Shown here one piece after another: positions 52,497-55,868 of a stretch of 64,000 nt of DNA (the stretch's first letter is position 1; every line of letters starts with the position of its first letter). Origin of the DNA: Candidatus Gastranaerophilales bacterium. Its GTDB lineage: Bacteria; Cyanobacteriota; Vampirovibrionia; Gastranaerophilales; Gastranaerophilaceae. The stretch spans positions 1 through 64,000 of the forward strand of contig CANPYC010000007.1 in the NCBI GenBank assembly GCA_947587615.1, read 5' to 3'. Position numbers and translations under genes: made by a program. Below the pieces are notes generated by a model that was not told where the DNA came from, made no database searches, and saw only the letters and a list, made by a program, of their open reading frames with translations.

Positions 52497-53603
52497 TTAT
52501 AATAGCTCATTTGGAATAGCATAAAGCAAGGTTTCATACCTATCATAAGAATAGTGTCCCAATCTGAAAGTATAATTTTCTAAAATTTGAGATAAATATA
52601 TTGGAATATTAATAAAGTCGCTATCAGAATGATAAATTGAAATTGCAAGCTGGGGTCGATGTTTTTTTACAATAGACCCCCCCCCTCGGAGTGCGTTCAT
52701 TTCAGCACCTTCAATATCCATTTTAATAAAATCAACTTTTTTTATGTTATTTTCTTCACACAACTCATCAATTGAAATTGTCGGGATTTCTTTTTTATGA
52801 TATCTTGCAGACGGTTTTACATTTGTAATAGCAGAAGCAGAACCATTGATTGAAATATCAAGCTTGTCTTTTTTATCCCACGCAGCACAAGGAATTATCT
52901 CAACGATATTTAATTTTTTTATAAGCTCATCATAGCTTTTGTTCTTTAGAATATCATAAAGCGGCTCCAGTGCTATAATTTTTTTCAAATTTTTAAAATG
53001 TTTGCAAAAACCAAAAGTCTGTATTCCGTTACAAAAACCACAGTCTAAAATATATTCGATTTTTTCTTTATTAACATAGTCGATATAGTGTCTATCATAA
53101 TTTCTTAAAAGATAATTTTCATCTATACCAAATTTTTCTTTGGCAATTTTTGAAATTTTTTTATAATCACAGTTTATTCTCGATTTCCAAACTGTTTTAT
53201 AAAGCTCTTTATCTTCGTTATTATTGAATAATTTTAAAACTTCATCAATTTTTGATTTATACTTTTTAGCTTTCAACAACTCGTCATATTTATAAGGCAT
53301 TATAATATAAGGAATATCATAGTATTTAAACAAAGCAACCGCTTCAAAAGGTTTTCTTGTTGTAATAATTACTAAATCAATATCTTTTCTGATTTCAGCT
53401 AAAGTGCTTAACTTGACAACAGGTGAAAAAGTATCATCATCAGACTTATTATCATCAATGTAGTATACAATTTTTATTTCATTATTAAATTTATTTAATT
53501 CGTTTTCGATAGCGTTTTTGATTGCTAAAGCGCTTGCGCCTGTTCCAAAAAGCGCAATTTTTTTAGTATTTTTAGGAATCTTATTAAATAAATTTTTAAA
53601 CAT
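52497..53603 (-). CDS. FkbM-family methyltransferase A, with G9 tract
   Basis: ISIDELCEENNIKKVDFIKMDIEGAEMNALRGGGSIVKKHRPQLAISIYH; N-terminal Rossmann-like KIALFGTGASALAIKNAI. Confidence 0.87.
   Translation of the reverse strand: MFKNLFNKIPKNTKKIALFGTGASALAIKNAIENELNKFNNEIKIVYYIDDNKSDDDTFSPVVKLSTLAEIRKDIDLVIITTRKPFEAVALFKYYDIPYIIMPYKYDELLKAKKYKSKIDEVLKLFNNNEDKELYKTVWKSRINCDYKKISKIAKEKFGIDENYLLRNYDRHYIDYVNKEKIEYILDCGFCNGIQTFGFCKHFKNLKKIIALEPLYDILKNKSYDELIKKLNIVEIIPCAAWDKKDKLDISINGSASAITNVKPSARYHKKEIPTISIDELCEENNIKKVDFIKMDIEGAEMNALRGGGSIVKKHRPQLAISIYHSDSDFINIPIYLSQILENYTFRLGHYSYDRYETLLYAIPNELL
52677..52685 (-). repeat. Poly-G tract (C9 on + strand) in methyltransferase A
   Basis: agaCCCCCCCCCtcgg. 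Confidence 0.95.
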
Positions 53604-53627
53604 TAAAACCTTTGTTTGTTAAGTTTA

Positions 53628-54731
53628 CTATTTTTTCATAAGCTCATTTGGAATAGCATACAAAACAGTTTCTAAAATTCCGCAATGATAATGCCCGAGC
53701 CTAAAAGTATAATCATCAAAAGTTTTAGCCAGATATTGAGGTATCGAAACAAAATCATCATGAGTATGATAAATTGAAATTGCAAGCTGGGGTCGATGTT
53801 TTTTCACAATAGACCCCCCCCCACGGAGCGCCTGTTGCTCCGAGCCTTCAATATCCATTTTAATAAAATCAACTTTTTTTATGTTATTTTCTTCACACAA
53901 TTCATCAATTGAAATTGTCGGGATTTTTCTTTTCGGATAAATTGCGTTAGGATTTTTATTTACAAGTGTAGTGCCGCTGCCATGGATAGAGATTTCCAAA
54001 TTATCTTTTTTATCCCATGCGGCATAAGGCAGAATTTCAACAAAATTTAATTTTTTTAATAAAATATCGTAATTTTCATCCTTATTAATATCATAAGCCG
54101 GCTCAAGCGCCCATATTTTTTTGAGATTTTTTAAATATTTTTTAAAGCTGAACGCATTACAACCGTTGAAAAATCCGCAGTCGATAATTGTTTCAACAGC
54201 TTGCTTGTTTATATATTCAAGATAGTGTATTTGATAATTTTCAGGAATAAGCGTTTTTGAGATATTGTGTTTTTGTACATATTTTTCTATATTGGAAAAA
54301 TCTCTGTCAATTCTTGCCCTCCACAAAATCTCGTACAAATTTTTGTCTTGGTCAAGCTCAAAGACTTCAAGCGCTTTTTTATAATCATCTTGATATTTAA
54401 GCAATCTGATTTCACTATCCAAAACAGTAGATATTGAAATATGGGGAATATCAAAAAAATTAAGAATATTTGATATTTCATAAGGTCTTTTAACCGTGAT
54501 TAATACTAAGTCGATTTTATCCTTTATTGTTTCTATTTCATAGGGTTTGATTATTGGATAGAGTATTCCTTTTTCATCTTTTGTTTTTTCTTTATCGATA
54601 TAATAAAGAATTTTAATATCTTTATTATATTTTTCAAGTTCTTCTTTTAATTTATAAGCAACTGTGCCTGCTCCGTAAAAAGCAATTTTTTTAGCATTTT
54701 TTGGAATTTGATTAAATAATTGTTCAAACAT
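53628..54731 (-). CDS. FkbM-family methyltransferase B, with G9 tract
   Basis: KKVDFIKMDIEGSEQQALRGGGSIVKKHRPQLAISIYH; KIAFYGAGTVAYKLKEEL N-terminus. Confidence 0.87.
   Translation of the reverse strand: MFEQLFNQIPKNAKKIAFYGAGTVAYKLKEELEKYNKDIKILYYIDKEKTKDEKGILYPIIKPYEIETIKDKIDLVLITVKRPYEISNILNFFDIPHISISTVLDSEIRLLKYQDDYKKALEVFELDQDKNLYEILWRARIDRDFSNIEKYVQKHNISKTLIPENYQIHYLEYINKQAVETIIDCGFFNGCNAFSFKKYLKNLKKIWALEPAYDINKDENYDILLKKLNFVEILPYAAWDKKDNLEISIHGSGTTLVNKNPNAIYPKRKIPTISIDELCEENNIKKVDFIKMDIEGSEQQALRGGGSIVKKHRPQLAISIYHTHDDFVSIPQYLAKTFDDYTFRLGHYHCGILETVLYAIPNELMKK
53814..53822 (-). repeat. Poly-G tract (C9 on + strand) in methyltransferase B
   Basis: agaCCCCCCCCCacgg. Confidence 0.95.
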
Positions 54732-54758
54732 TAGAAATCCTTTTTTAATAATTTTTGA

Positions 54759-55868
54759 CTATGAATTTTGATAGAGCTCACAAGGTATTGCATAAAGTAC
54801 GGTTTCCGTGCCTCCTAAAGAATAATGATCCAGCTTAAAGAAATAGTTTTCAAGGGTTTGAGCTAAGTATACGGGTATATATATAAAGTCGTCAAACTGA
54901 TGATAAATTGAAATTGCAAGCTGGGGTCGATGTTTTTTCACAATAGACCCCCCCCCTCGGAGTGCGTTCATTTCAGCACCTTCAATATCCATTTTAATAA
55001 AATCAACTTTTTTTATGTTATTTTCTTCACACAATTCATCAATTGAAATTGTCGGGATTTTTCTTTTGCGAAATTTTCTTGCATAGCTTTTTTCAAGAAG
55101 AGTTGAAGAACCTTCGTTTACCAAGATTTCCAATGTTTCTTTTTTATCCCAAGCTGCATAAGGAAAAATTTCAACAAAGTTTAATTTTTTTAAAAGAATG
55201 TCAAAACACTCATCTTTAAAAAGATCATAAAGCGGTTCAATAACGTTTATCTTTTCAAGATTCGGCAATTTCTTTTTAAAACAAAAAGCATTTGCACCAT
55301 TATAAAAACCGCAGTCAATCACTGTTTTTATTGCTTCTCTATTTATATAATCAAGATAGTGCTTCATGTTGTTTGCGGGCATATCTCTTTTTATTATGCC
55401 ATGTTTCTCTTTTACATATTGTTCAATGCAGGAAAAATCGCTCTGCATTCTTGCATGCCAAAGTGTTTTATAAAGCTCTTTATCCTCTTCATCTTTAAAG
55501 ACTTCAAGCGCTCTTGGAAAATCTTTTTCATATTTTTCATATCTGATTTTATTATCCAAAACAACACTGATGGTTATATAAGGAATGTCATATAGTTCAA
55601 GTATACCGATAATATTAACCGGACTTTTGATTGTAATTAATACTAAGTCGATTTTATCTTTTATTGTTTCTATTTCATAGGGTTTGATTATCGGATAGAG
55701 TATTCCTTTTTCATCTTTTGTTTTTTCTTTATCGATATAATAAAGAATTTTAATATCTTTATTATATTTTTCAAGTTCTTCTTTTAATTTATAAGCAACT
55801 GTGCCTGCTCCGTAAAAAGCAATTTTTTTAGCATTTTTTGGAATTTGATTAAATAATTGTTCAAACAT
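54759..55868 (-). CDS. FkbM-family methyltransferase C, with G9 tract
   Basis: KKVDFIKMDIEGAEMNALRGGGSIVKKHRPQLAISIYH; N-terminal region nearly identical to methyltransferase B. Confidence 0.87.
   Translation of the reverse strand: MFEQLFNQIPKNAKKIAFYGAGTVAYKLKEELEKYNKDIKILYYIDKEKTKDEKGILYPIIKPYEIETIKDKIDLVLITIKSPVNIIGILELYDIPYITISVVLDNKIRYEKYEKDFPRALEVFKDEEDKELYKTLWHARMQSDFSCIEQYVKEKHGIIKRDMPANNMKHYLDYINREAIKTVIDCGFYNGANAFCFKKKLPNLEKINVIEPLYDLFKDECFDILLKKLNFVEIFPYAAWDKKETLEILVNEGSSTLLEKSYARKFRKRKIPTISIDELCEENNIKKVDFIKMDIEGAEMNALRGGGSIVKKHRPQLAISIYHQFDDFIYIPVYLAQTLENYFFKLDHYSLGGTETVLYAIPCELYQNS
54948..54956 (-). repeat. Poly-G tract (C9 on + strand) in methyltransferase C
   Basis: agaCCCCCCCCCtcgg. 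Confidence 0.95.

What the first reader, a model, noticed from the sequence alone, without database searches (positions are those of the whole stretch)
52497..55868. Tandem FkbM methyltransferase genes, each with an in-frame G9 tract: candidate phase-variable surface-modification locus
Seen directly: three consecutive methyltransferase genes each contain exactly nine G (coding strand) at the same codons (RGGGSIV), in an AT-rich genome where such runs are rare; I saw no G/C run this long outside the FkbM genes. In gene A I checked that one G more leads to a stop about 20 codons on, and one G less to a stop within a few codons. Known: poly-G slipped-strand phase variation controls surface glycan and methyltransferase genes in Campylobacter and Helicobacter. 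Inference: the three genes switch independently, giving a combinatorial set of surface methylation states. I do not know of a description of this in this lineage.
Basis: partly seen in the sequence, partly recalled or inferred. Interest (0 to 1): 0.86.

Follow-up and report, generated by a model that had tools for sequence, protein, structure and literature searches.

The report
Slippage switches on gut-bacterium sugar-coat genes
Four methyltransferase genes in an uncultured gut relative of cyanobacteria each carry a run of nine G's that can slip and switch the gene on or off, and the same kind of run sits in about twenty other surface-sugar genes of this genome, so this lineage appears to shuffle its coat in the way Campylobacter and Helicobacter do.

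Summary
The three tandem FkbM genes each carry G9 at the same codons. A fourth FkbM gene in the window (43660-44778) carries G9 at a different site, and these four are the only FkbM genes in the genome. Genome-wide, G/C runs are bimodal: 66 of length 6, 3 of 7, 4 of 8, 19 of exactly 9, one of 10 and one of 11. 21 of the 25 runs of 8 or more lie in or beside surface-carbohydrate genes.

Switching is supported at DNA level in relatives. A polysialyltransferase-family gene is split at its tract here but intact in a sister species, with one base of difference at the tract; the half behind the frameshift is still under purifying selection. In another sister species two overlapping contig ends are identical except G9 versus G10, which is off versus on for a radical-SAM gene. 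The host is a Candidatus Gastranaerophilales genus that has lost MutL. One slip in A-C removes the last three core strands of the enzyme.

Most likely these are contingency loci of the Campylobacter/Helicobacter kind. I found no description in this lineage. Length variation of the four FkbM tracts themselves, and the methylated substrate, remain untested.

The parts
54759..55868 (-). FkbM methyltransferase gene C (369 aa), first gene of the apparent operon
   Evidence: PF05050 3.9e-17; AF2 model pLDDT 92.5, best solved match 2py6 FkbM
54948..54956 (-). G9 tract in gene C, codons 305-307
   Evidence: 8 G gives 309 aa, 10 G gives 325 aa
53628..54731 (-). FkbM methyltransferase gene B (367 aa)
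   Evidence: PF05050 5.3e-18
53814..53822 (-). G9 tract in gene B
   Evidence: 8 G gives 308 aa, 10 G gives 324 aa
52497..53603 (-). FkbM methyltransferase gene A (368 aa)
   Evidence: PF05050 1.3e-19
52677..52685 (-). G9 tract in gene A
   Evidence: 8 G gives 311 aa, 10 G gives 326 aa
43660..44778 (+). Fourth FkbM methyltransferase gene D (372 aa), next to a CDP-glycerol glycerophosphotransferase-like gene
   Evidence: PF05050 4.9e-19; only four PF05050 hits in the genome
44208..44216 (+).
   Evidence: 8 G gives 192 aa, 10 G gives 199 aa
42427..43641 (+). CDP-glycerol:poly(glycerophosphate) glycerophosphotransferase-like gene upstream of D
   Evidence: PF04464 8.6e-58
56048..56075 (-). Consensus sigma-70-like promoter TTGACA-16-TATAAT (12/12) upstream of gene C
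   Evidence: consensus match only
52456..52481 (.). Bidirectional terminator-like hairpin behind gene A, closing the C-B-A operon
   Evidence: consensus match only

Best explanation
The four FkbM genes are simple-sequence contingency loci. During replication the in-frame G9 tract slips by one or more bases. Nine G (or a change of three) gives the full methyltransferase; one G more or less truncates it at about 308-326 aa in A-C and about 192-199 aa in D, removing essential parts of the fold. The genes are therefore switched on and off stochastically and heritably in single cells. They belong to a genome-wide set of about 20 G/C-tract genes for surface carbohydrate (glycosyltransferases, polysialyltransferase-family and NeuB-type genes, acetyltransferases, a deacetylase, methyltransferases) in a gut Gastranaerophilales genus without MutL. 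The A-C tract lies in a block kept identical in the three genes, probably by gene conversion. Shown: tract distribution, reading frames, truncations, natural ON/OFF length differences in relatives, MutL absence. Inferred: slippage of the four FkbM tracts themselves, O-methylation of a surface glycan as the reaction, and escape from phage or host recognition as the benefit.
For: (1) Run lengths genome-wide 6:66, 7:3, 8:4, 9:19, 10:1, 11:1; extrapolating the 6-to-7 fall-off predicts about 0.006 runs of 9. (2) 21 of 25 tracts in or at surface-glycan-type genes, all four FkbM genes included, with D's tract at a different site from A-C's. (3) Relatives' FkbM genes read GA[EK] or GG[x] with mixed codons and no tract (45 Gastranaerophilales loci; genus members). 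(4) polyST gene: two halves here (217 and 218 aa) match one 422-aa ORF in sister species G029 at 88% and 90%, split exactly at the tract, GGAA+G9 against GGA+G9, 91.3% identity over 1211 bp; dN/dS 0.13 before and 0.15 behind the shift, ON control 0.12. (5) G015: contig ends C67 and C23 overlap by about 117 bp, identical except G9 against G10; the frame is open only with G10. (6) Deacetylase tract conserved in G029, 3 or 4 Gly in homologues. (7) MutL absent by both domains in all 30 genus genomes, MutS short and divergent. (8) A slip removes the last three core strands and invariant R314-H323.
Against: No reads or second strain of this species were available: the homologue search returned only this genome's own proteins above 47% identity, so G9 length change in A-D was not seen. 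All four FkbM tracts are ON. Tract load is patchy: most sister species have none although they also lack MutL, while MutL-positive genera have many. Four of the 25 tracts are intergenic with no evident target.
Confidence: 0.86

Rival explanations
1. The tracts are a by-product: with mismatch repair crippled, G runs grow neutrally, and gene conversion copies them among FkbM paralogues; any switching is incidental and not selected.
For: MutL is absent from the genus; the A-C tracts lie in a homogenised block.
Against: Tracts are concentrated in surface-glycan genes rather than spread over all genes and peak sharply at 9. Most MutL-lacking sister species have no G9 at all. Tract positions are conserved between species. 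The OFF gene stays under purifying selection.
Confidence: 0.08
2. The G tracts act through transcriptional or ribosomal slippage, giving a fixed mix of full-length and truncated enzyme from one DNA sequence, not heritable DNA switching.
For: G9 is long enough for polymerase slippage, and out-of-frame genes here could be rescued that way; nothing here excludes it as an added effect.
Against: DNA-level length differences exist: G029 against G000 and G9 against G10 within one assembly of G015.
Confidence: 0.04
3. Artefact of assembly or ordinary glycine-rich sequence.
For: The genome is a draft of 81 contigs, probably a metagenome bin; homopolymers are error-prone in some chemistries.
Against: GGG is 13.7% of Gly codons, so three in a row has p of about 0.0026 per Gly-Gly-Gly; four genes, two sites, and open frames that match at exactly nine; a tract at the same site is seen in an independent species.
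Confidence: 0.02

Closest known systems
Poly-G/C phase-variable genes (phasome) of Campylobacter, e.g. cj1426c 6-O-methyltransferase, cj1421c/cj1422c MeOPN transferases, C. fetus SAM methyltransferases G8-10 and radical SAM G9-10 (PMC8355987, PMC6321876)
   Same: In-frame G tracts of 8-11, many per genome, mostly in surface-glycan modification genes including methyltransferases; no functional mismatch repair in C. jejuni; number of loci patchy between species.
   Different: Different phylum (Gastranaerophilales, non-photosynthetic sister group of cyanobacteria); FkbM genes in tandem with a homogenised tract block; a divergent MutS is kept while MutL is gone; switching rates unmeasured.
Helicobacter pylori phase-variable fucosyltransferase and LPS genes (from general knowledge)
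   Same: Poly-C/G tracts in glycosyltransferases, including a GT10 fucosyltransferase as at C11:56594 here.
   Different: No close sequence relation tested; lineage and surface polymer differ.
FkbM methyltransferase 2py6 (Methylobacillus flagellatus)
   Same: Same fold and family; best PDB match by sequence and structure.
   Different: 17% identity; no tract or switching is implied by the structural match.

Membership tests
FkbM family methyltransferase (PF05050) | Match above Pfam's curated cut-off | tested here: met
   63-71 bits against a 22.7-bit cut-off for all four
FkbM family methyltransferase (PF05050) | O-methyltransferase activity on a known substrate | not testable with these tools
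   Needs an assay
SSR-mediated translational phase-variable gene (contingency locus) | Homopolymer above the mutability threshold (G/C of 7-8 or more, PMC6321876) inside the reading frame | tested here: met
   G9 in frame in four genes
SSR-mediated translational phase-variable gene (contingency locus) | Single-unit length change truncates or inactivates the product | tested here: met
   Truncations at 308-326 aa (A-C) and 192-199 aa (D); core strands lost in the model; loss of activity itself not assayed
SSR-mediated translational phase-variable gene (contingency locus) | Tract far above chance and biased to surface genes | tested here: met
SSR-mediated translational phase-variable gene (contingency locus) | Observed length variation, ON and OFF states, at the locus in question | tested here: inconclusive
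   Seen at other tract genes of this and sister genomes, not at A-D; no second strain or reads
SSR-mediated translational phase-variable gene (contingency locus) | High-frequency reversible switching in culture | not testable with these tools
   No isolate; needs an experiment
Lineage without functional mismatch repair, as in Campylobacter | MutS/MutL pathway incomplete | tested here: met
   MutL_C and DNA_mis_repair not found above cut-off in 30 of 30 genus genomes; MutS present but divergent. Functional loss of repair not shown, and MMR loss does not predict tract number

The most novel reading that the evidence does not exclude
A gut cyanobacterial-sister genus that lost MutL runs a Campylobacter-scale phasome in which the tract-bearing block itself is copied among tandem FkbM paralogues by gene conversion, so that new contingency genes are seeded by recombination; related genera have aimed the same G-tract device at families of pilin-like genes instead.
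Probability: 0.35. Interest if true: 0.75.

Novelty: new member of a known kind. Interest (0 to 1): 0.66.

Why it matters
Slipped-strand phase variation of glycans is known mainly from Proteobacteria and Campylobacterota pathogens. Finding a repertoire of about 20 G-tract surface genes in an uncultured, commensal-type gut lineage next to cyanobacteria, together with genus-wide loss of MutL, suggests that this route to surface variation arose independently in the gut. It also makes a concrete prediction that existing metagenomic reads can test at once. It warns that single metagenome-assembled genomes of this group will mis-call switched-off genes as pseudogenes and break contigs at the tracts.

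Tried and rejected
Hypothesis that modal tract length follows mismatch-repair status: rejected (MutL-negative G031 and MutL-positive G032 both mode 11). Hypothesis that MutL loss predicts tract number: rejected. Search for strain variants of A-C in the protein collection: only this genome's own sequences among close hits. Contig-end enrichment of tracts in G032 as evidence of read heterogeneity: not used, because those tracts sit in a repeated pilin-like family that would break assembly anyway. Literature: no held paper has both 'phase variation' and 'Gastranaerophilales', and the one with 'Melainabacteria' is about flagellin diversity; the library is partial, so this is not proof of absence. 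Three tandem tracts as three independent origins: rejected because of the homogenised block.

Full report
WHAT IS THERE. The window is contig 7 of a 2.13-Mb, 81-contig, 99.55% complete draft genome. Relatives of its FkbM genes in named genome records are almost all Candidatus Gastranaerophilales among the close matches, so the host is a gut-type, non-photosynthetic member of the cyanobacterial phylum (Vampirovibrionia/Melainabacteria). Three tandem genes (C 54759-55868, B 53628-54731, A 52497-53603, all -) encode 367-369-aa FkbM proteins (PF05050) with gaps of only 24-27 bases. A perfect TTGACA-16-TATAAT box stands upstream of C at 56075-56048, and a terminator-like hairpin behind A at 52456-52481, so C-B-A looks like one operon. 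Each gene has exactly nine G at the same codons. A fourth FkbM gene, D (43660-44778, +), follows a CDP-glycerol glycerophosphotransferase-like gene and has G9 at 44208-44216, at a different place: the SAM-motif position. The genome has only these four PF05050 hits.

CHANCE. In the window, eight-G matches number 8 against 0.07 expected, and none of 100 shuffles reaches 8. Genome-wide exact run lengths, derived (171 six-mers, 77 seven-mers and 49 eight-mers on both strands), are 6:66, 7:3, 8:4, 9:19, 10:1, 11:1. A smooth fall-off from 6 to 7 would give about 0.006 runs of nine. GGG is 13.7% of glycine codons in window genes.

WHERE THE TRACTS ARE. I fetched all 25 tracts of 8 or more, read their frames and scanned the genes against Pfam. 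Twenty-one are in, or at the edge of, surface-carbohydrate-type genes: four FkbM; three polysialyltransferase-family (PF07388); the junction of a PglD/hexapeptide acetyltransferase and NeuB; a GDSL hydrolase; two further hexapeptide transferases; an AlgX-like protein; four GT2; a GT10 fucosyltransferase; a Glyco_trans_1_2; a radical SAM/SPASM; a polysaccharide deacetylase; and a Methyltransf_25. The other four are intergenic. About 13 are in frame. Two are clearly split (polyST C9:39445, GT2 C19:33698), and GT2 C24:2390 appears to be out of frame with its start.

WHAT A SLIP DOES. In A-C, 8 G gives 308-311 aa and 10 G gives 324-326 aa instead of 367-369; in D, 192 and 199 instead of 372. In a confident model of C (pLDDT 92.5), Gly305-307 lie between two helices. 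The truncations lose strands 316-320, 342-348 and 356-362 and the invariant stretch R314-H323. In 45 related Gastranaerophilales loci examined, none had a tract in the FkbM gene, and wherever the motif was found the site reads GA[EK] or GG[x] with mixed codons. No run of 7 or more was seen in FkbM loci of the genus. The triple glycine of A-C is therefore derived. At D's site one relative (L222) has DGGG written GGG GGT GGT, so there the glycines may be older than the tract.

EVIDENCE OF SWITCHING. (a) A polyST gene is split here: its 217- and 218-aa pieces match one intact 422-aa gene of sister species G029 at 88% and 90%, meeting at the tract. The DNA is 91.3% identical over 1211 bp with a single-base length difference at the tract. 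The half behind the shift has dN/dS 0.15 against 0.13 before it and 0.12 in an ON control, so this is not a decaying pseudogene. (b) In sister species G015 the right end of contig 67 and the reverse complement of contig 23 overlap by about 117 bp, identical except G9 against G10 in a radical-SAM gene; the frame is continuous only with G10. The simplest reading is that both lengths were present in the sample and broke the assembly. (c) The deacetylase tract is conserved in G029, and close homologues have three or four glycines there, as three-base changes would give.

BACKGROUND. MutL is missing, by both its N- and C-terminal domains, from all 30 genomes of this genus, including many of 97-99% completeness, but is present in nearly all other genomes of the order (one sub-threshold fragment match in G027). 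MutS is present but short (about 774 against 865 aa) with altered ATPase motifs (GANMSGKS, DEPAKST). C. jejuni also lacks functional mismatch repair (PMC8355987). This is permissive, not sufficient: most sister species have no G9, and some MutL-positive genera have many.

GENE CONVERSION. Around the tract, A, B and C are almost identical from about -104 to +57 with sharp edges, against roughly 50-75% outside. The tandem tracts therefore share one history; D and the other genes are independent.

COMPARISON. This works like the poly-G phasome of Campylobacter, whose phase-variable set includes a capsule 6-O-methyltransferase (cj1426c) and, in C. fetus, several SAM methyltransferases and a radical SAM gene with G8-10 (PMC8355987, PMC6321876). 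Membership is met for tract length, frame, truncation and gene class. It is inconclusive for observed variation at these very four tracts, and untestable here for switching rate. I therefore call it a new member of a known kind in a new lineage.

LIMITS. One draft genome per species, no reads, no isolate. Surface location and the methylated substrate are inferred from family and neighbours. Independence of the three tandem genes is unproven.

Noticed in passing
L219, L220 (G035), L217, L218, L264 (G031), L240-L259 (G032): In other genera of the same family G10-12 tracts lie a few codons behind the start of families of repeated genes, many with a type IV pilin-like segment (FTLAEVLITLGIIGVVAA). 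In G032 most of the ~20 paralogues read carry G11 where the downstream frame needs G10, so most look switched off.
   Followed up: partly
G000 and 29 sister genomes; L157-L164: Genus-wide absence of MutL with a retained, shortened and divergent MutS (Walker A GANMSGKS, DEPAKST in place of DEIGRGT).
   Followed up: partly
window 56376-56895: Two tandem 260-bp copies, 99% identical, built of GGGTAGACTTTAGTCTACC-type repeats, on the promoter side of the FkbM operon.
   Followed up: no
L026:3273, L027:2876, L031:3058, L039:2196 (G000): Four intergenic G8-9 tracts, three of them directly after a run of about nine A, with no surface gene reading through them; possibly promoter-spacing switches or unrelated.
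   Followed up: no
L035:1864-1872 (G000): A G9 tract sits four bases before the ATG of a GT2 gene, where the ribosome-binding site should be; slippage could tune translation rather than frame.
   Followed up: no
L029 (G000:C9:30500-44000): A NeuB-type nonulosonic-acid cluster with three polysialyltransferase-family genes holds five tracts in about 7 kb.
   Followed up: partly
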